Below are positions 31,708 through 54,288 of a stretch of 64,000 nt of DNA, one piece after another. Source of the DNA: Tubulanus polymorphus. Taxonomy: Eukaryota > Nemertea > Palaeonemertea > Tubulaniformes > Tubulanidae. The first letter of the stretch is position 1. Every line of letters begins with the position of its first letter. The stretch is taken from assembly GCF_964204645.1 (NCBI RefSeq), contig NC_134028.1, positions 16,479,263-16,543,262 on the forward strand, read 5' to 3'. The translations under genes and the position numbers were made by a program. The notes below the pieces were generated by a model. The model was given only the letters and a program-made list of their open reading frames with translations. It was not told where the DNA came from and searched no databases.

Positions 31708-34702
31708 ATGTGTTTGAATAATATTTTTGATAAGCGGATGAGTGATCTTGAGACTATGGAACAGTTTAACTTGAATAATCTAATAGACGAAGATTTTAGT
31801 TTAACCGGATCTGATTGTCCTTATCTAGATGTATCTGAAATTGGATCTATTGGAACAGGTGATTCAAAATTTAATATAGTTCACCACAATATTCATAGCG
31901 TCTTCAGCAAGTTAAATGATGTTAAGCTATTGATCGATAATTGTAAGAGGAAACAATTCGAAATTGATGTACTTTTACTATGTGAAACGTTTATCACCGA
32001 TAATAATAAGTCCCTTTGTAAGATACCTGGGTATGTTTTGGTTGAGAAACATCGCAAGTCAATGGCTTGTGGTGGTGTGTGTGTATTTATATAAAAGATA
32101 GTATTTCATTCAATACCAGGGATGACCTTAGTATATTCAAAGAAGGATTTTTTGACAGCTGTTTCATTGAGATTAATTTTCGTGATTCTAAAAATTTGAT
32201 TATTGGAGAAATTTATCGCGTGCCGGGTAAAAGTGAAAAACAGTTTTTAAGTGATTATTATCAACTCATAACAAATACACTAGACTCTGAAAATAAGTCA
32301 GTTGTGATAGGTATCAAAATCTGGATTACTTGAAAATAAAAAGTCATCATAATACAAATAAGTTTTTTGAAATCAACGTAAACAATGGCCTTTTACCAAC
32401 TATTATAAGGCCTACTAGAATAACTAAAAACACAGCAACACTTATCGATAATATCTATGTTAGTCAAGATATTTGTTCTGCAAAATCTGCAATCTTATTA
32501 ACACATTCCTCTGACCATATGCCATGCGTACTTTCAATCAAAAAAATTACTGATAAAACAATAACACAGGAATTCATGTTAGAGACCTAAATGAAGGAAA
32601 CATTAACAGAATACGACTAAGACTTGAACAGTTTAATTGGAATAATCTTGAAACTATGAATTCTGAAAACGGCAACAATCTCATAATAAACAAATTGCAT
32701 GATATATTGGATGAAATTGCCCCAAAACAAACTAAGAAACTCAAATCAGTCAAAATCATTGAACCTTGGATGACTCCCGGCTTTTTATAATGTTCAAAGA
32801 AAAGCGACGGATTATATAAAGCAATCATTGGTACAGATAAGAGTAGTGTAAAATACAAAAATTATATATCATATAGAAACAAGTACAATCATTTAAAAAG
32901 AGCTGCAAAAAACCTTTGGAAACCTTTAAACGTGATAGTAGAAAACTGTGGAATATTTTAAGATGTTCTATAGGTAAACACAATGACAAGAGTTCTATTA
33001 TAAGTGATACTTTTGATATTCAAGGTCAACCAGTCAAGGACCCGTTTGTAATTGCCAACTCATTCTGTCAGTTTTTTAGTTCTGTCCTATGCTGAGAAGA
33101 TACGTCATTCGAGTGAAAATTATGAATCTTTTTTAGATGGCTCTAATACAAGTTCTATTTTTATATTTCCAACTGGACCCGAGGAAATAATTAAATTCAT
33201 CAATTATTTGCCTAATAAGAATAGCTCTGGTCACGATGACTTAAGTAATAACTTTCTGAAATGCATTGCAAATCAAATCAGTCAACCGTTATCAATTGTA
33301 TTCAATAAGTCTTTAGTTGAAGGGCATGTACCTGAAAATATGAAAGTAGCCAAAGTTATTCCGCTACATAAAGGAGGTTCAAAAAAGGAGCAAACTAACT
33401 ATAGACCGATTTCTCTCTTACCTGTATTATCTAAGATACTAGAAAAAAATAATGCACGCTAGGCTTTACCGCTTCCCAATCAAATCTAAAAAGATTTACA
33501 ATAGTCAATATGGATTTCGTCACAATCACTGCACCACTCATGCCATTATGGAATTATTAGGGAATTGTATAAGTGGGTTGGATAATAATGACAAAGCAAT
33601 GGGAATATTCCTTGACTTGTCTAAAGCATTTGATTCACTTGACATAGATATTTTATTAAACAAACTTTATCATTATGGAATTCGGGGAATTGCATATGAT
33701 TGGTTCAAGAGTTATTTAAATGGACGGAAAATTTATGTCAAATATAATAGCTTTGAATCGGAAATCAACACTGTTGATTACGGAGTTCCGCAGGGATCGG
33801 TTTTGGGGCCACTCCTATTTTTGTTGTATATAAACGATCTTAGTCATAATCTAGACAACTGCAAAGCTATTTTATTTGCCGACGACACCACACTTCTAAT
33901 TGTAGGGAAAGACTTTGAAAAAATAACTAAACATCTAAGTGACGACTTCAAAATTGCTATCAATTGGTTCAGGGCAAATAAACTCACGCTCAATATAACA
34001 AAATCTGCTGGACTTTGTATTAAACCACATCATCTAAGAATTGACAATCCCACTTTAAAATTTGAAAATAGCCAAATCGAGTTTGTTCATGTGCATAGAT
34101 TTTTAGGACTGCTGATTGATGATGAAGTTACATTTGAAAGTCACGTGAAATCTCTTTGTTCTAAGCTGAATAAGAATATTTACCTATTGAAATGTGTGAA
34201 AAATCTTTTACCAAGCTGGTCAAAGCGATTGCTTTACTTCAGTTACATAAACTCTCATCTAGCATACTGTTTATCTATCTGGGGCCCATTTATCTCAAAG
34301 AAGCAAGTCAATGTTTTAACCAACTTACAAAAGAAAGCAATCCGTGTTACTGGTTGTGCTAAATACAACGCCTCTACCTCACCTCTTTTTAAAAAGTTCA
34401 AGATTCTGAAGTTTGAAGATATGATAAACTTAGAACTTATCAAACTTGCATATGGATTTGTTTATAACCAACTTCCGCAACCAATTGTAAATTTATTCAA
34501 TAGAAATTCCTTTAATCATAGATATAATACTAGAGCTCGAAACCACCCTAGAATCCAAGCCCACAAAACCAGCATTTTCAATAAGTCATTCCTCTGTAAA
34601 GTTCCTTCAATTTGGCAAAGTCAACCTTTACTCATTAAATCCGCTCCAACTATAAACACCCTCATTAGTAGGTTCAAAAGAGATATTTTTAACCAATATT
34701 GA
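31708..34702 (+). pseudogene. ORF2 of the nested LINE: endonuclease and reverse transcriptase, decayed
   Basis: The endonuclease starts MCLNNIFDKRMSDLETME and has NIVHHNIHS, LLLCETFI, IGEIYRVPG and SSDHMPCVLSI. Frameshifts near 32,085 and 32,315 and a stop at 32,588 split it. The RT is in two pieces joined near 33,455: GHDDLSNNFLKCI, YRPISLLPVLSKILEK, then FLDLSKAFDSLDIDIL, GVPQGSVLGPLLF and the active site LFADDTTLLI near 33,870. The 416-residue RT piece is uninterrupted to its stop at 34,702, so decay is moderate. Confidence 0.9.
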
Positions 34703-35018
34703 TACAAAATAGATACTTATACAAAATACTATCCTAATTCATACACGTCTGCATGATTTAAATTCATCTTAATTTTTCATCAACTCATCCCTCTTCATTT
34801 GTTCTTTTCTTTAATTTGTTCTTTGTGTTCAAGGTGTCTGAACATCCGTTTTGATATACAGCCTTTATGGCTTTGTTCAGGCTCCTGTCACCTCATTGTT
34901 TGTAATTTACTATTGTTATTATTAATCTTGTACATATTGATGGTGACAAATAAACTACTATACTATTCTTATAGAACCAAAATTAAAATATCTAGATGAA
35001 ATATTTAATATATTTTCT

Positions 35019-35529
35019 ATGGAAGATCATACACCAGAATATAAGCAATTGCTTGAAAAAATGAAAATGATAGAAAATAAAAATGGTGAAATAACTAAAA
35101 AAGATATTATAAAAACAATTATTCCATCAACATTTAACACACAAGAAAAGAAAATGTATTTATATCTATTATTTAACGATTATTATAAAAAACCCTAAAT
35201 TAACAGAAGAAGATATGGAAAATATAAAAGAAACATTCACAAACATATTAAAATATTATGTGGATAATAGAATAACAGATTCAATTAATTATGAATTCTT
35301 TTTAAATAAGATTGTAAATTTTTTAAACATCGATATTATAATTCCATTTGATGAATTAACGAATAAAAAGAAACAAAGAGAGCGAGATGAAATGTGGTAC
35401 AAGATAGAACTTTATTTAAATGAGAAAAATGAAATGGAAGAACCTAAACAAATTATACAAGAACAATTAAATGGAAAAGAAGAAACCAATAGTGATTTCG
35501 AGTTTGATGATATTAATCCATTTCAATAA
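35019..35529 (+). pseudogene. Small acidic Polinton-element gene, function unknown
   Basis: From ATG at 35,019 (MEDHTPEYKQLLEKMKMIEN) the frame runs to a stop after NDYYKKP near 35,198, then continues in another frame from 35,200 (KLTEEDMENIKETFTNILKY) to DDINPFQ at 35,529. One extra base in a run of A explains the break. The original product would be about 170 residues, helical, Lys/Glu-rich with an acidic tail (SDFEFDDINPFQ). The frame is also open upstream of the ATG to the LINE border, so the N-terminus may have been cut off. It converges on the polymerase gene with a 7-base overlap. No family is recognised; an accessory replication protein is only a guess. Confidence 0.55.
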
Positions 35530-38500
35530 CCATAAGGTAATGTTTTTATACCATCATCTAAAATATGCCTTTTATCATCAAATGGATTCAAGCTAGTCTT
35601 TTCAACTTCATTAATGTACATCTCGTGATCTTCTGATCTTAAACAATTCATTTTATGTTTCATTACAATTGAGTTATATAAACACTTTATATAATCTTGA
35701 AATTCTATATGTTTATCAACCACATGTTTTGTTTAACTTTTTAGCCTCATGATAGCCTCATTTTCTATAACTGTACATTTTACTTCTTATCCCAACAAAT
35801 TCAATCATTTCATCACCCCCTAATTCATCTTTAAACTTACCAGGAATCTTTTCATTATCATTGCTAAATAGTTCATGATCTTTGGGATAATTGCTAAAAT
35901 CAAAATGATGTTTTATGTTTTTAAGTCTTTTGTTATATCATTTGTCTTGATTTTTAATATGTACGCATCCGTATTGGCCGCAATTAATGGATTAATGGAA
36001 ATCCACAGTTAAATGTTCCATCTTCAGTTGATAAATCATAGACATAATCTGATGGGATATATATTTCAAATAAATCTTTAACTTCTTCAGTTATTACTTT
36101 TTCTGTATGCCTTAGATTAAAACAATTTGGCATAGATTTAATCAATCCAATATTCACATCAAAACCTAATGAACTGCATAATATATGTAATCCTGATAAA
36201 GCAACTTTTCCTTTTTGTGCAAATGTTATTTCTGGAGAACTCATAAATTTTTTAGCACCATCTGCAGCATAAAATCCAATGAAGAACCATTTTCTTAAAT
36301 TATCTTTTGCATTTAATACATAATCTGGAACTATCTTTTCTTAAGTTGAAGTATTACTTTTAACTATTGCATGAATATAGAATTCGTCTTTATATTTTAT
36401 AGCAAAATCTTTAGGGTTATTAACGAGTATTCTATAAACTGCTGATGATTTCATAACATCCATGATTCTAAATGTTTTATGTGAATAAACTTCTTTACAG
36501 AATTTCTTAATTCTTTCTAATAATTTCAAGTCTTGATTGCAAATAATAATACCAACAATATTTAAAATATATGTAAATAAAAATACCAACAATATTTATT
36601 ACCCCAAACACTATTATACACACCTGCTGAACCATCTCCCATGAAAAATCCTTTGATTAAATATTCTTTTTCTTCCAATGTTTCGGGTTCTATATTGAAA
36701 ATATTATCAATTATTTCATTAAATGATATATGATTCCTTCTTTGGAAAAATCTTTTATGTAATAATTCATCTCCAATTTTTATATTAGTTGGTTTTATTT
36801 CATCACCATTTCGTTTAATTAAACTATGATCTTCTGTAACATCTACAAACCCTAATTTAGTTCTAACTCTATAGATTTTCTTATTTGTTTTATGCCTAAT
36901 TTTATTCTTAAATTTTTTCCATCCATTTCTTGTCCAAACATCCATTAATTCATTTATTTGTATTAATTCTTTTTCACCATACGAATTATAACATTCATTA
37001 TGTTTTGGAATTATTTCTGAAATTCTTCTAATTAATATCTTACTATTACATTTTAATAATATTGGGTGTCAGCTGTTACAGAATCAAAATATAATATTTC
37101 AATATGCTTTTCCCCAAAAAGTGGTTGTAAAACATTATAATAAAAATCATACATAAATAATTTTGATACTTCTAAAACAGTTGAACCAATGAATATAGGT
37201 TTATTAAATTTCATTGACGTTCTTTTTAATTTAACTGCTGTTAAATAATCTTCAAATCTTTTATTTCCTAAATGTCTAGGACTTGATTGTAAATGTCTGA
37301 ATCGTTCCGAATTATTTACTAATTCAATATAACTTCTATTTCTAATATTTTCACATGTTTTACCATAAAAACTATTATTCATTAATTTGAAGAAATCTTT
37401 TTCACAATCTGTTTTTGATATGGTTCTCTGTTGTGTATTAAAATCTATATATTTTTCTAACAACTTCGATTGATTAAATTCAATATATCGATGTACTTTC
37501 TTTAATTTCATTCCTTGTTTAAGATAAAATTTTAACATTCTATAATGAACAATATAATTGTATTTATTATTTTGAGTAAGTATTAATTTTTCTGTAAAAA
37601 CATTTTTTAAGATTTTTTATCTTAAAGTGACTCCAAATATCTAATGTTCTATTAAAAACTTCATCTTTCATATACTCCTCTTTTAATTGATCATAAAATT
37701 GTTATTTTAATAATTCTGTTTCATTAAAATCATCATGTGTTTTATAAAATGAATAAGGAATTGCGCCTTTATATCTCAATAATTTAAAATCTTGTTCATT
37801 TGGGTAATAATGTCGAGTTATTACAAAATCATTATCAACTAAACTTTTTGCTAAATTATCTAATGAACTTGCTAGAAATCTATAAGAATCTAAAAATCTA
37901 ATGCAACCAAATTAAAATGAAATATAATTTTCGGATGTCTTAGCTAATAGTTTAAAATCATATTTTCTTACATTTGTACCATTCATAGCATTATATTCTT
38001 CTATTTCTTGGAGAATTGTGCCAAATTTTCCTGATAATTGTTTTATAAATAGATGGGTATCATAGCCCGATAAATTATGAAATAATATTGGTACGAAATT
38101 AACTTTCTTAGCTTGTAAATTACAATCTTCATGAGCAGCTCCACGATATTTTGCATTTAAATGATCATGATCTCTAACTTTTTTATCAAATGAATGAAAA
38201 CGTTTTTCACAGTAACAACAATGAGTTGAGTAATTAAAATAAATTTCATCTTCTTTTGTCATAACTATTCTTTTATTTTTGTTTAATAGTTTTGCAAAAT
38301 CACTTTCTAATTCAATTATTTTGTTACAAAAATTATTAACTACATCTTCACCTCTAAAAGGAATATATTGACTTTGATATAATTCAGGATAATTTGATTT
38401 TATGTAAATTCCATAAGCAGCAGCTCTTTGATGAACTTTTTTAATTGTGTTTATAATTGGTGGATTGAATCATATCTTCATTTAATTCATTTCCTTTATC

Positions 38501-40072
38501 CATTGATTTTAAAATTTGCTTTTTATTATATATTTCTTTTCTATCTTGATTAGTTAATTCTTTATTCAACGATTCAAAATCCCCATAAATTACAAATGGC
38601 ACTCTATTTTTTAATTTATGATTAGTAAATTTCAATTTATAATCTTTTTCTGTTGGCATTATTAATTTACATAAATCTTTATTATCACATAATTCTTTAT
38701 GTTTTAGTAATGCATTTTCAGTTCTAAGTTTAGATAAACATTTTCAACATAAATATATTTTGCTATGACTGTTGAAATCACTTTCTGTTCTAAAGAATAA
38801 ATCAATTTGTTTTAACCACATATAATGTTCATTTTCATCTTTTTTGTAATATAACAAATCTATAAAATTTTCATCGTCATAATGTTTTGTTAGATATAAA
38901 GCTTCTAATGTATAATCTTTAATATTTTCACCTTTTTTCTTTGGTAATTGCATTAATTCGAATACATTTATTTTTAAATCATTATCTTTTTCTATTTTAG
39001 GAATCATTTTTATAGTTACTGGATATTGATCAATTTCATATTTTTTTTCATATTTCTCGTAATTTGTCGTACAACAAACATTTTCCTGAGTTGGGTGTAA
39101 GCGACTAATAATTGACCATAGAAAACATTTATTATCTTTATTTTGAATATTTATTACTGCTTTTGTTGTAAATGGTAATTTAATATAAGATGATGCTTTA
39201 ATATCCTTTTCTGTTGTAAAGTTTGTGTCATTTTTAAACATTGTTTTACTTTTTGATGTTTTAATCATTTTTGTATTATAAACATTTAAATCTAAAAATA
39301 TAATTTCATTCAATGTTAAACCAGAACCCTCAAAATATCTTTCTTCAATATGTCGTTTAAATTCATTAAATATTTTTTCTAACCTCTCTTTTATTTGCGT
39401 TTTTGAAATTATTTCTTCAGAGAGTGTTTGAATATCATAATCCATTTCATCTTCTGACTTTAAAAAACTTACTTTCCCAGAAATACTAATTTTTGGATAT
39501 TCAACATCTGTTACCAAATCTAGTATTTTTTCCATGATTTCAATAAATTTACTATAATCTTCTATTGTTGTACATTTAAAAAATCTAAATATAATAGCTG
39601 CAGGACCAATTTTACTACGTAATGTTTCTAATATTTCAATTATATCTTTTATTTCTAGTGAATCGATATAATTTCTAACATTTTCCATGTAAGGTTTATT
39701 TGAAATGGATTTAGTTTTTGAAGTTGATTTTTTTACTTGTTGAGGTTTATCATCAAAATATTCTGATCCTCAAACATTTTTATTTGAATTTTGATAGTGT
39801 TTTTGTGATTCGAGATGTCTTTTATAATTCCTTTTTACTATAAATTCATTACAAACAATACATTTAATTTCATCTTTTTTCATATCATCTAATCGTTCTT
39901 TTCTTTCATTGGAATTTTCTGGAGTTTCAAAATCTATTACATTTTTCATATGATTTGTAGATTTTTCATGACGCGATTTTTGATATTTATCAATGTATTT
40001 TTTACAATATGTACAATAATATTTATTTTCATAAACATCAATTTGTTGTGTGTGTTGTTCACTCTCTCCCAT
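35523..40072 (-). pseudogene. Polinton-type DNA polymerase B with zinc fingers, HNH-like insert and intein, decayed
   Basis: The gene starts at 40,072, inside the right TIR. In order on the minus strand there are two C2H2-like fingers (CTYC...H, CIVC...H); a TGA at 39,770-39,772; an N-terminal domain with NKDNKCFLWSII; exonuclease motif I (VIYGDFES, near 38,580); a Cys-x2-Cys/VRDHDHLNAKYRGAAHEDCN nuclease-like insert with ExoII (FHNLSGYDTH, 37,912-38,262); polymerase motif B (KLMNNSFYGKTCEN, near 37,370); motif C, interrupted by the intein; and the C-terminus DDKRHILDDGIKTLPYGY at 35,523. Motif A (DxxSLYP) is missing, with an apparent internal deletion near 37,540-37,640. Several stops and frameshifts remain. 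Related enzymes in Polintons and adintovirus-type elements copy linear genomes by protein priming. This one is inactive. Confidence 0.9.
35973..37082 (-). pseudogene. Intein with LAGLIDADG endonuclease in polymerase motif C
   Basis: The polymerase frame reads EILYFD and then a Ser (37,082-37,080) opens block A, S-V-T-A-D-T. After a 1-base shift the usual spacer follows, then block B with T-E-D-H (DVTEDHSLI), endonuclease block C (FFMGDGSAG, near 36,640), a second LAGLIDADG-like motif (FFIGFYAADGAK, near 36,260), block F (YVYDLSTEDG, near 36,030), and a terminal Asn (35,975-35,973) followed by Thr-Asp, where the polymerase resumes. The insertion point between the two aspartates of YxDTDS is a known intein site in family-B polymerases. 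Size (1,110 bp) is normal for an intein with a homing endonuclease. Breaks: the early frameshift, a tandem duplication near 36,545-36,600, a TAA near 36,340 and an 8-bp duplication at 35,983-35,998. Confidence 0.88.
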
Positions 40073-40157
40073 TTATAAGGAAAAGAAATCACTTGTGATG
40101 ATGAGTGGTGTCTCGACCTCCGACCTCCATATCTGAAAGCGTCATTTTCCTATTACT
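40001..40157 (-). repeat. Polinton-like right TIR
   Basis: Inverse partner of 29,957-30,113. The ATG of the polymerase gene (40,072) lies 85 bp inside the tip, so the promoter and the first zinc-finger codons are within the TIR. Confidence 0.9.
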
Positions 40158-40163
40158 AACATG
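40158..40163 (+). repeat. Target site duplication of the Polinton-like element (AACATG), right
   Basis: Second copy of AACATG, immediately after the terminal CT of the element. Confidence 0.95.
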
Positions 40164-40785
40164 ATCTGTTTGAACTTTGGTGGTATAACAACTCTCAATC
40201 CCAAAAGTATGCAACCCTGATTCACAGATAATTCATTTCTGCGCCTAAAATAAGGCAAAATATCAGGATCATTGCAGTGATTAGGCCAACCATTAAGTAT
40301 ATGTTGTGACATTGTTGGATCTTTTCTTATCTCAGACTCAATGTCTGCAGCATTAATAGGTAACACATTCACATACGTAAAATAATTAATATCCAGTTCC
40401 ACTGCTTCCATCTCAGCATTAGGATTAGGAATTCCAGACAACATATCACAGTTTTCATGATCTTTACCACTTCTATGCACAATTTCGTAATCATATGCCA
40501 TTAAAGTAAGTGACCTCCTTTGCAGACGCAGAGCTGCCAGGGCCGGAACTCCTGTTTTCGAACCAAAAATTGTTACAAGAGGTTTGTGGTCAGTGACCAA
40601 CAGAAACTTTCTACCGTATAGATATTTGTGGAAGTGCTCGACTCCGTAAATGATTGAAAGAGCCTCACGTTCAATTTGGGAGTAATTGCGTTCTGCAGGA
40701 GTCAAACTACGATTACCATATGCTATGGGTTTCTCTGAGCCATCTGGAAACTTTTGAGAAAGAATCGCACCTAAACCATACGGAT
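40164..40785 (-). pseudogene. Ty3/Gypsy pol: RNase H and start of the integrase linker
   Basis: On the minus strand NPYGLGAILSQKFPDGSEKP opens the RNase H, followed by RNYSQIEREALSIIYGVEHF (the E and catalytic neighbourhood), LLVTDHKPLVTIFG, the C-terminal catalytic region (HENCDMLSGIP, where functional copies have an A-D-LSR pattern), and the pre-integrase linker up to PPKFKQIM at the Polinton border. The frame is open from about 40,785 to the junction. The RT and gag that should lie to the right on this strand are absent: AT-rich Polinton-like sequence begins at about 40,786. Confidence 0.9.
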
Positions 40786-40812
40786 TTAAAATATTATTAA
40801 AAATTGAAAAGG

Positions 40813-40998
40813 CTATATGTTCAATAGATTTTTATTCGATATATTGTAAAATGAGTTACATAAACTAATATTTACTAATTCTAAATCAACACAATTTCTA
40901 AATTCTCTATCTAGTTGTATCAATAAATAATGAGATTTATAATTTTTAAATCTTCTTGAATCAACAAATATTCTATATTCTTTTGATTTATCTTGCAT
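40813..40998 (-). CDS. N-terminal fragment of a possible Polinton/adintovirus-type structural protein
   Basis: The 61 residues start KSKEYRIFVDSRRFKN and continue YLLIQLDREFRNCVDLELVNIS...SFYNIS. The pattern 'short polar start, FVDSR, xFxIxLDxxxxNVxxxELxxxxIPNxFYNI' is what I associate with the N-terminus of minor-capsid/penton-like proteins of Polinton-like viruses, from memory of the pattern only. The frame ends at a stop 27 bp before the Gypsy junction, so most of the protein is missing. It lies just downstream of the 112-residue gene on the same strand. Confidence 0.45.
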   Translation of the reverse strand: MQDKSKEYRIFVDSRRFKNYKSHYLLIQLDREFRNCVDLELVNISLCNSFYNISNKNLLNI

Positions 40999-41015
40999 TT
41001 ATTTTACGTATTTTT

Positions 41016-41354
41016 TCATTCGAAATCTATATCATGACATCCTCTTTCATTCTTACCTTTGTATATGAAATAGAAATCACCAGAACACACTTCTAGATCT
41101 TCACTAGATAATCTATGAAATCTATCTGGTAAATTTGGTCTATATTTATATCTATTTCCTTTTAATCCTTCATATTCTAAGTGAATAACTAATTTATTAC
41201 CATATCTATTAGTAATTGTTTCAATATTTGTAATTAAATATCTCTTATGTAATGTTAATTCGGTTAACTTTTTGAATTTATAATATACAGATTTGACATT
41301 TGTAGTATCTTTTATTCTATCTAGGAATTCACTGTGTATTTGTTTACTCTCCAT
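41016..41354 (-). CDS. Small (112 aa) virus-like protein, possibly OB-fold type
   Basis: Starts MESKQIHSEFLDRIKD at 41,354. The middle has KLTELTLHKRYLITNIETI, TNRYGNKLVIHLEYEG and LPDRFHRLSSEDL, then a tail FYFIYKGKNERG. The alternation of a short 'K-L-x-E-L-x-x-x-x-x-Y' strand, a 'T-x-x-G-x-x-L-x-x-x-L-E' strand and a 'LP-R' segment resembles small OB-like proteins common next to PolB genes in Polinton-like elements. Single-stranded-DNA binding is possible. The frame is intact and begins about 85 bp from the terminal hairpin. Confidence 0.5.
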   Translation of the reverse strand: MESKQIHSEFLDRIKDTTNVKSVYYKFKKLTELTLHKRYLITNIETITNRYGNKLVIHLEYEGLKGNRYKYRPNLPDRFHRLSSEDLEVCSGDFYFIYKGKNERGCHDIDFE

Positions 41355-41438
41355 TTATTATACATATTTTTTTATTAAAATTGATTTCATTGATATTATA
41401 TTCATTTATATAATGTTCATATTTGTGAATATTATTAG

Positions 41439-41584
41439 AGTAATAGGGTAAGTGTTGTTTCAGATTAAAGGTTGAAAGGTTGAGTGAGTAAAAAATAAAA
41501 ATAAATTCGAGTGTGTATTTATTTTTATCTTTTATGAGCTCGACCTTTCGACTTTTGATCTGACACAAGACTTACCCTATTACT
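41439..41584. repeat. Imperfect hairpin made of two inverted Polinton-type tips
   Basis: Left arm agtaatagggtaagtgttgt... at 41,439-41,485 and right arm ending ...acttaccctattact at 41,584 are about 80 percent complementary over some 45 bp, with a loop of about 50 bp. Each arm starts with AGTAATAGG, the same nine bases as the first element's tip. Confidence 0.8.
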
Positions 41585-43440
41585 TACGTCAGGTCGATTT
41601 GTTTTATTGTGAGAAATGGCCGGTTATAGTTCAAAAAGACCGACAGGCCAATGGGTATCGCTTTCAAACACTTTTTAATGATAATTGGACCGACAACTTC
41701 AATGAAAATATATGATGAAGTTTATTTCATTCAAAAAAAACTTATTTCACTGTATGAAAAACGCAGGTAGCCATAACGCGCGCGTCAACATGAGCACATA
41801 TGCTGTCACTGTAGCGTGTGCAGTGTGAGACACTTTGATCTGCCAGCACGCGCTTGCCTCGCGTAGTACATATATGGCTAGACGCCGACTGTTGCGATGC
41901 AATACGTCTGCAGTAAATGAGTAAACGCACGCCACATTGCCATACAACTCGGCGATAATTTCGGTCTTACTGTATGGCTTTCAAGGACATTGTCTAGCAA
42001 CCTTTCAAATTTAAAGACTCCCGCTGACTTTCCCGGCACAAAACAAGGAATTTAAGACCGCTACGGTACCGACCCTTTTGATATTTTTGATATTATTGTG
42101 ATCAACTTCTAGGCCTATCACCATTCAAACCAATATAATGTCAAATAATCTTGAATACAACGTAACCGGATCTATTTTGCAGCGTATTTAACCCCATTTA
42201 TCGTATCTTTCGTTAATTCAATGACTTTAAAAATGGTGCGCTTTGGTTCGCGGTAAACATACACGACACCATGCCGAACCACTCGTAATAGCTCTCTAAA
42301 AATAAGTAACCTATCGTACTACTCGTCTCGTAGTTCATAATTAAACATACCTGTAAATGCTGAAGGTATCGTAGTGAGAAATATCTTCTGACACCTGACA
42401 AGAACGCCATTTATCGGATTTTGCATACCTTGCACTATATTTTCAATCTGAAAGCATATTGAAACGTAGGTACAAGAGTCAATTTACCTTATTATTGTCT
42501 CACTGTGAATTCTACTAACATATCGAAGATATACACGCCACACAGTTGGGCTTAACTGTAATCTAGAATCCAGGGGCCGGTTGCATGGTCATGGCTTAGA
42601 CTTAAAAGACCAGTCTAAGACCAACTTAGTTCTATAGCCAATCTAACAACTTAAGACCCGTCTTAAAATTTAAGACCACTTTTGGACTTAAGTCACGACT
42701 GTGCAACTGGCCCCTGAACCTATTGGAATTTTGAAAATTTGGATGATCATATTCGAACACCAACTAAACGCGATATGATGATTTATCCTTTACTGCGACA
42801 CACCACACTACACTCCCAAGTGAGCATGAGTCTTACAAGCCTTACCGTCGAATTACATATATCCATTTCATCCACTACCTTAACTCAGATCTAGATAAAC
42901 CTACTGAACAAATAACACTGCTCGAAGATTTTGCCATGACAATTCTAATGATAAGGTTAACTTATTATGCTAGATAAAATGAATCCCCAATACGTGTATA
43001 GTTATGAATGAAATCCAACTTAAAGATCAATTAGCGCTTTATTTGTCAAGATGCTTATTTTGAACCCATTCAATAGTTAACTAACCCATATTACAGTACA
43101 AAATGTTAATTCTAGTATATTAAATATTTTACCTTTGAAGAATGTGAACGAATTTGGAACGCAAATAAAATATTTATAATTTATCAGAATGTGATTTTAA
43201 ACCTTTTATTTCTCAATTTAATAATTTGAAATTAGAAATCATAATGGATATTTGATTGATTTAAATAAATTTCCTGTAATTTATGAATAAGTTATGAGAT
43301 GTAAAGATTAATCATTATTTTTTTTATAATAGAAAATATGAATATTAATGTAGGACCGAGTATATCTTTTGGATTTGATTTTAAACATGGTAAAGAAATG
43401 AGAATTAAACATATGTGATGACTGATTTTAACAAAACTAA
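41585..43440. other. No gene seen apart from one MITE
   Basis: The ORFs at 41,742-41,947 and 42,213-42,410 show no domain. Confidence 0.5.
42571..42716. mobile_element. Palindromic MITE, 146 bp
   Basis: The ends caggggccggttgca and tgcaactggcccctg are inverted with one mismatch. The interior is built from 'agactta/taagac' words in both orientations, so the whole element can fold. No coding capacity. Confidence 0.8.
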
Positions 43441-43449
43441 TTGTTCTAA

Positions 43450-43837
43450 CTCGTCTTTTGGGGTAGCTCCAGCTACGATTAAATCCCGAGTTATGCGACA
43501 ATGAGAAAGCTAGTAGTTTTCAGCACTAAACGTAGACGATTTTATTATTTAGATTCTCAATCGAGTAGCTTGGGAATTTGCCTGCAAGATGTATCAGGCT
43601 CCAAGACTCGTCTCAAACTCAACTGCTTGTTCATGGATTTACATTCTATTTATATAATGCTATAAAAGTTGACAGACATGTTTGAGCACACAATTAATTA
43701 CAAAACAAACTGTTATCACAAGTGTCGAATTGACAGATGTCTAACTGATTGTGTCACTAATAATTAATTAATGGTGAATTAAAACAACAGCGCGAGTTAC
43801 TGAGGAATACATCTATCCAAACTTTCTATTATTAAAA
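43450..43837 (+). repeat. Putative 5' LTR of the plus-strand Gypsy element
   Basis: The sequence just before the primer-binding site has a TATA-like 'tatataatgctataaaag' near 43,650. Its right edge is set by the PBS at 43,838; its left edge is a guess. No matching 3' LTR was found, and it is not similar to the repeats at 48,997 and 50,461. Confidence 0.35.
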
Positions 43838-43850
43838 TGGTGGAGAACCC
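43838..43850 (+). promoter_or_regulatory. Probable tRNA primer-binding site of the plus-strand Gypsy element
   Basis: TGGTGGAGAACCC begins with the TGG expected from a tRNA CCA end and lies 27 bp before the gag start. The PBS at 49,376 (TGGTG-TAGAACC) is similar, so both elements may use related primers. Confidence 0.5.
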
Positions 43851-43864
43851 AGCTTCGAATACCG

Positions 43865-45130
43865 ATGCCGCAACCATCTAACAACCGTACGATCGTAACA
43901 AGACAACAAACGAACCAAGTTCAGCAAAACGTTGCAAACCCATTATTAATTCCGCTATACGAGCCGCCGAGGGATATTCAAAAAATTATAGTTCACGAGG
44001 AGGACGAAGAAGTACATCTGACAGAAATCGACCAGGTAGATAACGATATAGACATTAACGAAAACCTAGAAAATAACATGCCTTATAAACTCGAACTTCC
44101 AGGTTACGACCACAGTCGGCCTATCAAAAGTTGGCTGAGTGACTTTGACCGTTGGGTCCAAGCGACAAATATACCGCTCGAGCAGCAAACCACAGCCCTA
44201 ATACTGCGTTTATCTAGTTCCGCCAGATCCGCCATAGATGCATTGACTCTCGAACAACAGAACGATTTGGAAACAGTAAAAAACTGCTTGAAAAATAAAT
44301 CCAAACCTCTGCAAGACCCAATGAGGGGTCTACATAAGCAACAGGCAGACGAATCCGTACAGGCGTACATGGACCGAGTAGAAAGGGCAGCTAGCCAGTC
44401 AGAATGTACGTTGAATGTGCTATCGAGCAAGCCATAGAATGCCTAAACGACTCTATTAAAACCTTAAGTCGCAACTCACTGCCCTAATACATTTGATAAG
44501 TTAAGAAAAATTGCAATGAACGCAGAATCAGCAGCAGAGGGTAAAGTTACCGCGACTTGTAGTCTCACTGCAGCAGTCGACAAACTAACTAGTCTTTTGG
44601 AAAATGTTCAATTAAGACCGGACAATAAGGTGTGTGCGTGTCAAGTAAACGCGATAACGGGAAATCATTTTAATAAAGAACAATATAATAGTTCCAATAA
44701 AAGTGACAACGGATTTAATTATGCGAATGGACAGAATTATCAGAAGCAGCAACAACAACAACAGTCCTGGTCTCCTCAATTCATGCCACAAACGCAACAG
44801 TTTTGGCCGCAGCAGCAGTTTTGGACACCACAACATCAGCCGCAGTTCCAGCAGCCGCATTTCCAGCAGCGGCAGTTCCAGCAGCTGCAGTCTAGTAGTA
44901 GCAGCAGCAGTTCCAGCAGCCCCAGTTACAGCAGCAGCAGTTCCAGCAGCAGCAGTTCCGGCAACAGCACTACAGGGGACACCAGAGGCATAGAGGGAAC
45001 AAAAATAGGAGAAATCAATGGTCGCCGCGGAATGGACATGATAATTCATGTAAACAGGTTCCATTGTGTTACACATGCAATACCCTCGGCCATATATCTC
45101 GAAATTGTCCAAGCTCAGGTCAGAAATAGG
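43865..45130 (+). pseudogene. Gypsy gag with Gln-rich tract and zinc knuckle, frameshifted
   Basis: The first 190 residues (MPQPSNNRTIVTRQQTN...) contain a capsid-like region: LPGYDHSRPIKSWLSDFDRW, QTTALILRLSSSARSAIDAL, MRGLHKQQADESVQAYMDR. A frameshift near 44,415 ends this piece. The next part, from 44,516, includes a Gln/Phe/Pro-rich stretch encoded by cagcagttccag repeats (44,750-44,980), in which the frame shifts again. The nucleocapsid knuckle C-x2-C-x4-H-x4-C (CYTCNTLGHISRNC) is readable near 45,070-45,115. Ser-rich ORFs in this stretch are the repeat read in the wrong frame. Confidence 0.85.
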
Positions 45131-45199
45131 GGTGCGAGCCTGTCCAAGAAAATCCAACTATGGACGGGCACTCGAAGGTTGAAGTTGCGTTAATGGCGA

Positions 45200-45540
45200 C
45201 ATTAGAGAAAAATATTTGTGTCGGGGCACAGAATTAACGCATTGCTTGACACAGGTGCTGGTATTTCTTGCATATCATTGTCATGTCTATACAAAACTAA
45301 ATTTGCTAGTGAAAAATTATCAGCGCCTGAGATAAAAGAAGTAGTTGGCGTGAGTGGAAGTAAGTTGTCAGTCCTAGGTACAGTAAACTTGCCCTTAATC
45401 TTCCCGGGTATAAAAACGCCAGTGGAGCAGAAATTTCATGTATTTCAACATCTTCATCAACCCCTTATACTAGGTTTAGATTTCATAAAGGAGAAGCAAG
45501 TAATAATTGATATACCCATTAAAGTCTTTAGTACGAAGAG
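45200..45540 (+). pseudogene. Gypsy aspartic protease
   Basis: A retropepsin-type domain with the catalytic LLDTGAGISCIS (45,240), a flap-side GVSGSKLSVLGTV and the C-terminal LILGLDFI. Such enzymes cut Gag-Pol into its parts. The frame is intact until the transposon inserted after position 45,540, which separates protease from RT. The linker resumes at 47,903. Confidence 0.85.
45532..45540 (+). repeat. 9-bp target site duplication (TACGAAGAG), left
   Basis: Identical to 47,903-47,911 on the far side of the transposon. Confidence 0.95.
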
Positions 45541-47902
45541 CGGTTCCTGAACTTCGCTGAAAAAGCTGAATCACTGAAACGCTGAAATAAAAACGCTGAA
45601 ATTTCAGGGAATTTCCGAAAAACGCCGAAATTTCAGGGAATTCCCGAAAAACGCTGAAATCGTGCTAGGTACCAACAATACACGTTTTGAAATATTTTCC
45701 GGGCCGGTGTCCGCTGCCGAGTCCTGAACCGTGTTTTAGTCTCTACCTTCGGTTACAGAGACACGCATGGACAGTATGTGTGGAGTATACTTCTAGAGGG
45801 CCACTTGTTGGACAAATTAATTCGCTTGAAATCCGGATTTTTAATGCATACAGGCAGCATAATGAGGAAAACCCATACACAAACCGTGCAAGCCAACTTA
45901 AACACTATGCTCAATATTCCCTGCAAGACGCAAAATATCTTATTTGAACGTTCATGTATAAAACATGGAGCAACTTTTCTTTTGTCAACACGTTGATGGG
46001 CGACGGACTATGTCACTATGGTATTCTCTGAAGGAGGTAAATTAAATTTGACAGCTAGTTATATAAATGATGCAGCTTTTGGACAAAAGGGATCTAACTA
46101 AATTTCTTTTTAATTCACTGTGGAATGGAATGGAATGGATTGACGCAAATGGCATGCAGTAGGCCCCTACGTATGGGTCATACTGATTAGCGTCAACCAA
46201 TTAATCTAAATCGGGCTAACCATTCAACAACTGTGAATAATTTATTTGCTGTGGCGAGATAATAATTAGTTTTTTTGAAGAAATGACATACCAACTGTTA
46301 GAAAAATGAACCCATTCTTATTTTTAGACTACTACTGAATCTATAAAAGGAGGAGTCATAGACAAAGTTGATTTGCTTAGCTGGTGACACTTCTTGTCAA
46401 GTACATCATCTCAAGTACTGGGTGTTTTGTAAGTTTAATTTCAGTATTTATTTACTAAGTGCTGTTCTCTCGGACCTCAGTGCTTTCAAACTAGGCCCAC
46501 CCCATAGGCTATATAGTCCAGGTGTATTAGCCACTATTCTTTTATATCCGACTAAAATGCACCTTTTTCTATTTTTAGATTCAGGCTTAGAATGTGCAAA
46601 TTTTTTGAGATACTGAGAAATCAGATGGCACCAGTAAACTTCAACTGCGAAATTTGCAGCAGGATAGCTGAACGACACAATTTTTAAAAATAAAATGGCT
46701 ATTCGAATGCTATTTCAATAATAACTTGATTCAACCGGAGAGAAATAAGTCAATTGCGGATGTACAGTACACCCACTTTTCTTCCCTGTTTCCTGGTACC
46801 AAATTTTTAGTCTTAAGCTAAGCGATATTCTAAGGTATACTAGTGGATTTCATTAGAATATGAAGCAATGGAACCAGAATTCTAGCCAGAGTTAAGCGAA
46901 CTATTGATTCTGATATAATGTAAGAACTGATTTCCTTTGTATACTCTTGCAGAATGTGTTATGTATTATTTCAAGCTGTTAAATAATATAGTTAGACAAA
47001 TGTCCAATTATTGGATCTTTCTTGTTGACTCGTTTAATTTTGTGAGTTAAGAGTTCCAGTCAATCCACAATGTGCAGTGCCTAGCCTTCATCTACACTAA
47101 AGCCATGCCTGTGTATGGGAAAAAAATATCGGTCGACTCCTATAGGCCAGACACATCAAAGCATGCAATACATTGCAGATAGTAGTCTCCGGCAAGTCGA
47201 AAGTAAACCAGGTTTTACCCCGTACCCCACCCGGGAACAAAGACACTTAAAGATTCCTTCCTCCTTGTAGAAATTGTAGAAATATGGCACCCAATTGTAG
47301 CAATGCTAAGTACAGTATACTATGACGGTTGAACCTTTATTAACGAATTTCAATGACACCGAAAATAGAATCAAAATAATCATTAGTTCCATGCTAGCAC
47401 TTAATTTGGGTTATCAGGTTCAGCCTAACTGTACTTTCATTCAGCTACTACTTGTATGAGACTTGGCAATGATAAGTTGCAAGAAATCACGAAACATAAG
47501 AAAAAATATTGTGAATTAATATTACTGTGATTAAGAATTTATTCAAATGAAGTGATAACTTCATTGTTAGATCGTACCGGTATATGCACATAAAACTATG
47601 GCAAAAAACACATCTAACAATCCACGCAATCCGCAATCGATCAAGTCGATCATGACGACGACCTTAAGGCATGTCTCTGTAACCGAAGGTAGAGCATAAA
47701 ACACGGTTCAGGACTCGTCAGCGGACGACGGCCCGGAAAACATTTCAAAACGTGTATTGTCGGTACCTAGCACGATTTCAGCGTTTTTCGGGAATTCCCT
47801 GAAATTTCGGCGTTTTTCGGAAATTCCCTGAAATTTCAGCGTTTTTATTTCAGCGTTTCAGCTTTTCAGTGTTTCAGCTTTTTCAGCGAAGTTCAGGAAC
47901 CG
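45541..47902. mobile_element. Complete non-autonomous DNA transposon, 2,362 bp, MULE-like
   Basis: The ends cggttcctgaacttcgctg and cagcgaagttcaggaaccg are perfect inverted repeats and belong to TIRs of about 235 bp (to about 45,775 and from about 47,665). Inside each TIR are two to three tandem units of 'cgctgaaatttcagggaat'. The insertion duplicated 9 bp of Gypsy sequence. A 9-bp TSD with long TIRs containing tandem repeats suggests the Mutator-like superfamily, but there is no transposase to prove it. The interior has no domain-bearing ORF. Relatives lie at 10,437-13,097 and 26,498-26,667. Confidence 0.9.
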
Positions 47903-52205: not shown

Positions 52206-52439
52206 AGGATAGTAAAGTATAGGTGCTGGGATAGTGAGGTATAGAGGTGCGGTTCGACTCCGGAATAGGTCAAAATAGTTCCATCGTGGATGGTTTTCTT
52301 AAAAACTGTGAGTGGTTTGGTTTCAAATTGCCGTAAGAAACCTGATTGTCGACCATTTCTCAAGTCGACAATCGGCAATCAAAAACCTGATTGCCGATTG
52401 TCGACCTGTTTTCGAGTCGGCAATCGGCAATCGGCAATC

Positions 52440-52975
52440 AGAAACCAATCACCCACAGCATCTATATCACCCTCACAATCGCAGCATCTATATCACCCTC
52501 ACAATCGCAGCATCTATATCGCCCTTACAATCACAGCATCTATGTCACCCTCACAATCACATCATGTATTGCACCCTCACAATCACGGCATCTATTGCAC
52601 CCTAACAATCACAGCATCTATTGCACACTCACAATCGCGGCATCATTATCGCCCTCACAATTACAGTTTCTATATCACCCTCACAATCATAGCATCTATA
52701 TCACCCTCACAATCACATCATCTTTATCGCCCTCACAATCATAGCATCTATTTCACCCGCACAATCGCAGCATCTATAGCAACCTCACAATCGCAGTATC
52801 TATATCACCCTCACAATCACAGCATCTATATCGACCTCACAATCACAGCATCTATTTCACCCTCACAATCACAGCATCTATATCACCTTCACAATCACAA
52901 AAAAATCACAACATCTATTTCACCCTCACAATCACAGTATCTATATCACCCTCACAATCACAACACTGAATTTTA
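52440..52975 (+). repeat. Minisatellite, about 30-bp units, about 18 copies
   Basis: Units of 'catctatatcaccctcacaa' plus 'tcacag' with substitutions. The array keeps long ORFs open in more than one frame because the period is divisible by three. The 232-residue and shorter Ser/His-rich ORFs are therefore repeat translations. Confidence 0.9.
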
Positions 52976-53159
52976 TGAAAGTCAATAAAGGGAAATGGTC
53001 GATTTCCGATTGTCGAACCGAGAAATGGTCGACTAGCAGGTTTCCGATTGCCGAATGCCGGGAATTGCATAGTGAGGTATAGATGTTCTCAATAATGAGG
53101 CATAGATGTGATGGGATAGTGAGGTATATAGATGATGCTGTAATGATAGTGAAGTATAA

Positions 53160-53400
53160 ACGTGCTGGGCTAGTGAGGTATAGAGGTGCCGGGCTGGTGA
53201 GGTATAGAGGTACCGGGATAGTGAGGTATAGATGTGCCGGGATAGTCATGTATGGAGGTGCTGAGAGTCCCGGGTATGTCGGGCTTGCCGGGAGTGTCGG
53301 GTATTTAGGGATTGTCGGGAGTGCCTTGTACGTTGGGATTGTCGGGTATGTCGGGAGTGCCGGGTATGTCAGGAATGTCGAGTATGTCGGGAGTGCCGGA
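53160..53400 (-). repeat. Inverted partner minisatellites
   Basis: 'gtcgggagtgccgggtatgt' 9-mer units (53,265-53,400) and 'ggtatagaggtgccgggatagtga' units (53,160-53,265) are the complements of the arrays near 52,075-52,245. The 30-bp minisatellite is therefore flanked by inverted arms. Confidence 0.8.
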
Positions 53401-54288
53401 CTAAATTTGATAAGCTTGGCAGAATCACACCTTTTCAAAATTAGAAAAACTACATCTACGCACTATTTCACAAGATACTGGACTTGACCCTCTATGGTAT
53501 TTTATTCTTGTACTAACTGACCGACAAGTCTATAAGGAAATAAAATGTGGGTTTTTATACGCATTTTAGAGTGTAGTCCATACAAAATAGAAAACAGTAC
53601 AACCGTAAATATAGACCTAATTTTCTTTTCATATTTTTCAATCATAAAGTGGACATAAGGGGTATAAGTTATATCCAAGTGATTGAAAATGCATTGAAAA
53701 TGCATTTTTCAGTCCTTAGAAAATTTACTCACATTTATGATTATTTCTGCAGATATAATAGAAATATATGCCACAGCCAAAGCATGGGAAAGAACTAGGC
53801 CTACTACGAAACTTTGTTCGGACACGTGAGGTCTGAATTAAATTTCATAATTTTGGTTATAATCGATTGGGTGACGGCGGAAGGCGATAAAACGAAAATA
53901 ATTCTTTTCCTGGTTGTTAAGTCGGAAAAAAAATATTTCATGTATATTTAAAAGTGAACATTCGAAACAAAAAACCTGGTTGGGCCTAAATAATCAGTAT
54001 TTTCCAACTGTGATCAATTTTTAAACTGGAGGCTTGGAATGATAAAAAAGAACCAAAGATATGAATTCAAGAAGATCAGTAACTTTTATTGAATTAATAA
54101 TTCATTTAAGCTAACCAATTGGTAATGTGCATTAGATTTAATAATAATCATATAATAGGATATTTCATTCCATAAATTAACAGTTTTCAAGAAATGAAAG
54201 AACAAAATAACGGACCAACTGGCCCTGTGGCTCACTTTCAAATCATTGAGTGTATATTGTCAAAAATTAAATACTAACTATAAAATAT
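53401..54288. other. No gene seen
   Basis: AT-rich; the only ORFs are short and featureless. Confidence 0.5.

What the first reader, a model, noticed from the sequence alone, without database searches (positions are those of the whole stretch)
35973..37082. Intein with homing endonuclease in an animal Polinton-type DNA polymerase
The polymerase frame is interrupted at the first aspartate of the catalytic YxDTDS motif by a module with recognisable intein blocks: a Ser-initiated block A (S-V-T-A-D-T), block B with T-E-D-H, two LAGLIDADG-like motifs, block F, and a terminal Asn followed by Thr-Asp, where the polymerase resumes. Inteins are very rare in animal genomes. I know of them in large DNA viruses and their relatives but cannot recall a described example in a Polinton/Maverick. 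If confirmed, this is a selfish protein element nested in a selfish DNA element nested in a retrotransposon.
Basis: partly seen in the sequence, partly recalled or inferred. Interest (0 to 1): 0.92.

Follow-up and report, generated by a model that had tools for sequence, protein, structure and literature searches.

The report
Intein in an animal transposon's polymerase
In an animal genome, a family of virus-like transposons (Polintons) carries inside its DNA polymerase gene a second parasite, a self-splicing protein segment (intein) with a DNA-cutting domain, of a kind that reviews say animals lack, and copies with and without it sit side by side.

Summary
Window 35,973-37,082 (minus strand) is a decayed intein between YFD and TD of the catalytic YxDTDS motif of a Polinton PolB. 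It is not an oddity of one pseudogene: one search scored 150 related intein N-halves in the same genome (its cap), and 11 copies have uninterrupted 1,686-1,690-aa PolB frames with the intein in frame. Over 76 distinct copies, broken ones included, Ser1, block-B Thr and His, terminal Asn and Thr+1 are nearly invariant, both LAGLIDADG Asp residues are kept, and dN/dS in open copies is about 0.22. Nine intein-free alleles of the same subfamily (95-100% identical across the site), 141 scored copies of an 81-85% sister subfamily and 8 of 8 read copies of other PolB families run straight through the site, so the insertion is exact. A marker 9 bp away occurs in both states with and without the intein. 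Relatives at the same site lie in viral and Asgard-archaeal polymerases. The host is a spiralian animal (ordered Hox cluster on a contig that also carries intein copies). Reviews state that inteins are absent from metazoan genomes. Splicing and homing are inferred, not shown.

The parts
35973..37082 (-). Intein (decayed copy) inserted between YFD and TD of the PolB catalytic motif
   Evidence: open copies; intein-free alleles
37065..37082 (-). Block A, SVTADT, Ser1 nucleophile; the frame breaks shortly after it
36562..37068 (-). Open piece: N-terminal Hint half and first LAGLIDADG helix
   Evidence: TIGR01445 E 2.7e-4, PF14890 E 0.0047
36826..36837 (-). Block B T-E-D-H
36631..36660 (-). LAGLIDADG motif P1 (LIKGFFMGDG)
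   Evidence: PF14528 in open copies
36341..36595 (-). Open piece: middle of the endonuclease domain
   Evidence: aligned to an open copy
35984..36340 (-). Open piece: second LAGLIDADG half and Hint C-terminal blocks
36257..36286 (-). LAGLIDADG motif P2 (FFIGFYAADG)
35990..36049 (-). Block F (DYVYDLSTEDGTFNCGFPLI)
35973..35975 (-). Terminal Asn codon (block G)
37083..37616 (-). N-extein piece next to the intein (ends ...ILYFD)
   Evidence: its last 120 aa 92.5% identical to the open copy L004
35523..35972 (-). C-extein from TDAYIL to the PolB stop codon (frame disturbed)
35523..40072 (-). Decayed Polinton PolB gene fragment (zf-U1, Endonuclease_7, PolB pieces)
   Evidence: equivalent open copy PF03175 E 1.9e-20
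35113..35529 (+). Convergent neighbour gene of the Polinton (VLTF3-like hit in this copy)
   Evidence: PF04947 E 4e-7; convergent ORF at the same place in L101

Best explanation
A LAGLIDADG-type, pol-c-site intein has invaded one subfamily of Polintons (Mavericks) in a spiralian animal. PolB is translated as a roughly 1,688-aa precursor. The intein's Hint domain (Ser1, block-B Thr/His, Asn355, Thr+1) excises it and rejoins YFD to TD(S/A), restoring the catalytic YxDTD motif without which the polymerase should be dead. The endonuclease half may cut intein-free PolB alleles at this site, so that repair from an intein-bearing copy spreads it among the many Polinton copies of one nucleus. Shown: exact insertion; intein-plus and intein-free alleles in one genome; conserved catalytic residues; purifying selection; a nearby marker in both states with and without the intein. 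Inferred: splicing, endonuclease activity, homing as the driver, and acquisition from a large DNA virus.
For: Profiles. Residues, counted on alignment columns over 76 distinct copies without asking for any residue: S1 73 of 73 read, T83 74 of 74, H86 74 of 74, D150 73 of 73, D262 70 of 73, N355 74 of 76, Thr+1 76 of 76. dN/dS in 34 open copies: intein 0.217 (bootstrap 0.206-0.231), residues 170-355, which were in no selecting query, 0.218, endonuclease 0.242; N-extein 0.138 (0.034-0.306) and C-extein 0.111 in 33 copies each. 11 copies have uninterrupted frames of 1,686-1,690 aa with a 355-aa intein in frame. Empty alleles: 9 at 95-100% and 141 at 81-85% among 150 scored of 1,600 candidates; 9 and 8 of these read directly; 8 of 8 other-family copies. 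Both TDA and TDS occur in plus and in minus alleles. Same site in relatives. Element type.
Against: The penultimate residue is Lys 55, Val 11, Phe 8, Ala 1, Asn 1 of 76, never His, so C-terminal cleavage may be slow or differently assisted; a clade of viral relatives also ends in KN. Many copies, the window's included, are broken. dN/dS was measured on copies picked for open frames, which biases it down. Distances between copies correlate poorly even among adjacent 150-300-bp windows in intein and exteins alike, so general recombination, not homing, could explain the spread; recurrent mutation could explain part of the marker pattern. No transcript or protein evidence. The structure model of the N-half is weak (pLDDT 65; best Foldseek E 0.21).
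Confidence: 0.9

Rival explanations
1. It is a true intein that splices, but the endonuclease no longer homes; presence and absence are shuffled by ordinary recombination and gene conversion among Polinton copies.
For: Mosaicism is seen in all windows compared, not only near the intein; flank trees mix plus and minus alleles.
Against: The endonuclease domain is about as constrained (dN/dS 0.242) as the whole intein (0.217); D150 73 of 73 and D262 70 of 73 copies read. Endonuclease domains that stop homing usually decay (general knowledge).
Confidence: 0.35
2. A dead relic: a former intein that no longer splices and is carried along by amplification of defective elements helped in trans.
For: The window copy and many others are broken; the penultimate His is absent.
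Against: Strong purifying selection, nearly invariant splice residues even with broken copies counted, and 11 long uninterrupted PolB frames through the intein.
Confidence: 0.07
3. A lineage-specific polymerase domain that stays in the mature enzyme and only resembles an intein.
For: Of the 30 copies best matched by C-extein, 28 hold it and 2 keep only its last residues.
Against: It splits the catalytic YxDTD motif; intein-free alleles at 95-100% identity have the motif uninterrupted; splice junction residues are conserved.
Confidence: 0.02
4. Foreign contamination: a protist or virus sequence mis-assembled into an animal genome.
For: Inteins are reported absent from animals (PMC5784728, PMC8529194; passages read).
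Against: Intein matches lie on 11 of the 12 large contigs and C-extein matches on all 12; the window copy lies among retrotransposons; contig C6 carries both intein matches and a ten-homeobox Hox cluster.
Confidence: 0.01

Closest known systems
pol-c inteins of family-B DNA polymerases (archaea and large DNA viruses; the label pol-c is recalled)
   Same: Same insertion point YxD^TD, Ser1, TxDH block B, a YVYD block F, LAGLIDADG-type relatives, Thr+1. Of 28 relatives read, 25 have an Asp directly before Ser1, 22 end N^TD and one Q^TD.
   Different: Extein is a Polinton PolB (PF03175) rather than a PF00136-type PolB (4 of 4 tested); penultimate residue K/V/F; many copies in an animal nuclear genome.
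Inteins in PolB of large eukaryotic viruses (67 DNA polymerase inteins listed in PMC5784728, passages read)
   Same: Nearest clade in the tree is L132+L133 (support 99/96); L132's extein resembles Pol delta (E 1e-45).
   Different: Only about 32-35% identity; L133's extein is instead closest to 1s5j, 'DNA polymerase I' (archaeal by recall); long branches make the placement rough. The viruses behind L132 and L133 were not identified.
PI-PkoII archaeal polymerase intein (PDB 2cw7)
   Same: Best solved-structure match by sequence (E 3e-7; 1e-11 with profile).
   Different: 537 aa against 355; insertion site of PI-PkoII not tested here.
Homing-endonuclease insertions in polinton pPolBs and GIY-YIG/HNH genes of Polinton-like viruses (PMC11071308, PMC12220804; passages and one section read)
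   Same: Insertions in replication proteins of the same class of elements; PMC11071308 suggests that they result from intein invasions.
   Different: The families named in the passages are GIY-YIG and HNH, for pPolB only 'diverse'; the passages read mention no Hint domain, splice junctions or plus/minus alleles in an animal.

Membership tests
Intein | Nucleophile Cys/Ser/Ala at position 1 | tested here: met
   Ser in 73 of 73 copies read, 3 not read
Intein | Block B TxxH | tested here: met
   T83 and H86 in 74 of 74 read, 2 not read; window TEDH
Intein | C-terminal Asn/Gln and +1 Cys/Ser/Thr | tested here: met
   N355 74 of 76, Thr+1 76 of 76
Intein | Penultimate His (usual, not universal; recalled) | tested here: not met
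   K 55, V 11, F 8, A 1, N 1 of 76. Usual rather than required, so it does not exclude membership; viral relatives ending KN exist
Intein | Curated intein profile | tested here: met
   TIGR01445 30.9-31.3 bits > 24.5 in 3 of 3 open copies; PF14890 below its cut-off in 3 of 3
Intein | In-frame insertion with uninterrupted homologues at the exact site | tested here: met
Intein | Hint fold | tested here: inconclusive
Intein | Self-splicing activity | not testable with these tools
   needs a bench assay
LAGLIDADG homing endonuclease | Two LAGLIDADG motifs with acidic residues | tested here: met
   D150 73 of 73, D262 70 of 73 read; PF14528 above cut-off in 3 of 3 open copies
LAGLIDADG homing endonuclease | Cuts the empty allele and homes | not testable with these tools
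   only indirect: plus/minus alleles and mixed flanking markers
Polinton/Maverick | PolB of the PF03175 class | tested here: met
   E 1.9e-20; protein priming itself not tested
Polinton/Maverick | rve integrase | tested here: met
   375-aa ORF, PF00665 E 1.9e-7 but 31.7 bits just under the cut-off of 32.6; Chromo E 2.3e-4, also under its cut-off
Polinton/Maverick | A32-like packaging ATPase | tested here: met
   PF04665 E 4.2e-11, 43.2 vs 22.8 bits
Polinton/Maverick | Double jelly-roll major capsid and penton proteins | tested here: inconclusive
   253-, 462-, 481- and 326-aa ORFs without a convincing Pfam/PHROG hit; no fold made
Polinton/Maverick | Terminal inverted repeats and 6-bp target duplication | not tested

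The most novel reading that the evidence does not exclude
An active homing intein is running as a drive inside an animal germ line: its endonuclease cuts intein-free polymerase genes among the Polintons of one nucleus, copies itself across, and the double-strand-break repair helps cause the fine mosaicism of these elements; splicing efficiency (non-His penultimate residue) may act as a switch on Polinton replication.
Probability: 0.4. Interest if true: 0.95.

Novelty: new variant of a known kind. Interest (0 to 1): 0.87.

Why it matters
Reviews read here in passages state that inteins are absent from metazoan genomes (PMC5784728, PMC8529194), a premise used to argue for splicing inhibitors as antimicrobials. 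Here a well-conserved intein sits in many copies of a transposon in an animal nucleus, with empty and filled alleles side by side. That makes intein invasion, homing in a multicopy target and virus-to-transposon transfer directly testable, and it supports with sequence the suggestion (PMC11071308) that inteins have invaded polinton polymerases. No claim of first report can be made beyond the ten open-access searches run.

Tried and rejected
Chance resemblance: rejected on profile scores and on exact intein-free alleles. Window-only pseudogene: rejected, 40 of 78 loci read hold an open intein (chosen partly for open frames). A first residue tally was partly circular, because the extraction pattern asked for YFD, Ser-Val and N-T-D; it was redone on alignment columns without such a demand, and only that tally is cited. 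A diversity profile along the locus suggested peaks at both junctions but is confounded, because loci were picked by similarity to an intein N-half or C-extein query; not used. A frameshift shared by broken copies near the C-junction looked like a repair scar but is mostly length change in an A-run; not pursued. A polymerase query in viral contigs found no relative. Plasmids: no intein hit; phages: one record at 28%. Rfam on the window: nothing at gathering scores. Host by mitochondrial COX1: no match, which shows little because organelle contigs may be left out. Foldseek E-values for the N-half model are not significant by themselves.

Full report
Observation. The window copy is decayed: block A, the N-half, the middle and the C-half lie in separate open pieces. 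Pieces were searched apart. The N-half alone gives TIGR01445 E 2.7e-4 and PF14890 E 0.0047.

Copies in the same genome. The window lies in an unnamed 267.8-Mb assembly of 77 contigs, twelve of which are large (11.5-32.1 Mb, about 262 Mb together; lengths). The N-half finds 466 candidates; 150 were scored and all 150 match (the window's own copy at 100%, the rest at 85-92%). A C-extein query finds 1,425 candidates; 150 were scored, all at 93-100%. I read 78 loci, which are 76 distinct places since two copies were fetched twice. The 40 loci were chosen mostly for long open frames, so the share of open copies is no estimate. A pattern search found 38 loci with an open intein from YFD to N^TD, and reading the longest frames added two that start SITADT. 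Searches list 11 distinct copies with a frame of 1,686-1,690 aa and no stop in the match; all 11 hold a 355-aa intein in frame. Six of the 11 were found with the intein itself as query. One search lists two more frames of that length with a stop inside.

Selection. In 34 distinct open 355-aa copies dN/dS is 0.217 for the intein, 0.242 for its endonuclease part and 0.218 for residues 170-355, which were in no selecting query; in 33 copies each it is 0.111 for the C-extein and 0.138 for the N-extein (interval 0.034-0.306). Choosing open frames biases this downward, so it supports function without proving it.

Empty sites. A PF03175 search and distances to C-extein matches pointed to intein-free copies. 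Eight of eight fetched copies of other PolB families read YTDTDS or YMDTDS without interruption. Five, then four more, copies of the same subfamily have no intein: eight read ILYFD^TD(A/S)YIL and one has Ile at +1. A natural intein-free allele used as probe found 1,600 candidates. All 150 scored run through the site: 9 at 95-100% and 141 at 81-85%, a sister subfamily, of which 8 were read. Of the 150 C-extein copies, at least 8 are these empty alleles. Of its best 30, 28 hold the intein and 2 keep only its last residues.

Mobility. N-flank and C-flank trees (36 plus, 8 minus, 8 sister rows each) unite plus and minus alleles against the sister group (100/100) and mix them; well-supported branches force at least 3 (N) or 4 (C) changes of the plus label. 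At +3 after the site, Ala and Ser codons both occur among filled copies (48 and 28 of 76) and among empty alleles (6 and 3 of 9). The main intein tails (QK, AK, AV, CF before Asn) each occur with both codons, some combinations in only one or two copies (4 of 78 loci not read). So intein presence and a marker 9 bp away are not linked, by recombination or, less likely, recurrent multi-base change. However, distances in neighbouring windows correlate weakly everywhere (Spearman 0.07-0.29 between neighbours), so general recombination is rampant and homing is not singled out.

Element and host. PolB has zf-U1, Endonuclease_7 (weak) and PF03175. Downstream in another copy lie a convergent zinc-finger gene, several ORFs without convincing hits, an integrase with chromodomain and an A32-like ATPase. 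That is a Polinton by gene content; capsid genes and terminal repeats were not settled. A homeodomain probe found 38 matches, ten of them on one strand of contig C6 between 5.318 and 5.635 Mb. Read in order and named by recalled signatures, they are a Post2-like gene, two Lox4/Lox2-type genes with the UbdA-like peptide, Antp, Lox5, Scr, Dfd, Hox3, Pb and Lab: a spiralian set. C6 also carries intein matches. Contamination is therefore very unlikely.

Origin. Viral contigs yielded relatives (3 loci, 18, 80 kept of 106) and bacterial/archaeal genomes 5. Of 28 loci read, 25 have an Asp directly before Ser1, 22 end N^TD and one Q^TD. Exteins tested are PF00136 polymerases (4 of 4). In a tree of 29 inteins the Polinton ones join L132 and L133 (99/96), with long-branch warnings. 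L132's extein is Pol-delta-like, L133's is closest to 1s5j. The simplest reading is transfer from a large DNA virus in a shared host; the donor is not identified.

Literature. PMC5784728 and PMC8529194 (passages read) state that inteins are absent from metazoan genomes. PMC11071308 (passage) notes homing endonuclease insertions in polinton pPolBs and suggests intein invasions. PMC12220804 (passages and section 12) describes GIY-YIG and HNH genes in PLVs. Passages of PMC5718144, PMC3671162, PMC10120064, PMC4642659 and PMC10583447 added nothing closer. Ten searches of open-access papers, of which I saw the listings, showed no described animal Polinton intein; most subscription papers and bioRxiv are not held.

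Verdict. A genuine intein, most likely able to splice in its open copies, in a Polinton of a spiralian animal, polymorphic among copies. Splicing is inferred with high, homing with moderate confidence.

Noticed in passing
window 35113-35529 (+): The gene convergent to PolB gives a VLTF3-like hit (PF04947, E 4e-7), while the longer ORF at the same place in L101 (521-1816, -) hits zf-U1 and no VLTF3.
   Followed up: partly
L110: One intein-free allele of the intein-bearing subfamily has Ile instead of Thr at the +1 site (IDAYIL), a change that should block splicing if an intein entered.
   Followed up: no
L014, L015 (C4, 8 kb apart): Two near-identical derivatives in which sequence upstream of the last residues of the intein is replaced by unrelated sequence: shared deletion or local duplication.
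   Followed up: partly
L003, L017, L023, L035, L039, L053, L054, L055, L058, L064: These copies differ by one base in length at an A-run exactly at the intein/C-extein junction, a mutation hot spot created by the QKN tail.
   Followed up: partly
32 open copies among L004-L081: Pairwise distances barely correlate between adjacent 150-300-bp windows: extreme mosaicism among Polinton copies, cause unknown.
   Followed up: partly
L088, L090, L093: Viral pol-c inteins whose frame stops 184-193 aa after the intein start; in L093 an endonuclease-like frame follows, as in fractured split-intein genes (likeness recalled).
   Followed up: no
window 52269-53462: Long frames of tandem histidine- or proline-rich repeats on both strands, probably a minisatellite.
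   Followed up: no
window 33443-45550: A LINE-type reverse transcriptase (33443-34702, +), a gypsy-type RNase H (40142-40831, -) and a retroviral-type protease (45206-45550, +) surround the Polinton fragment.
   Followed up: partly
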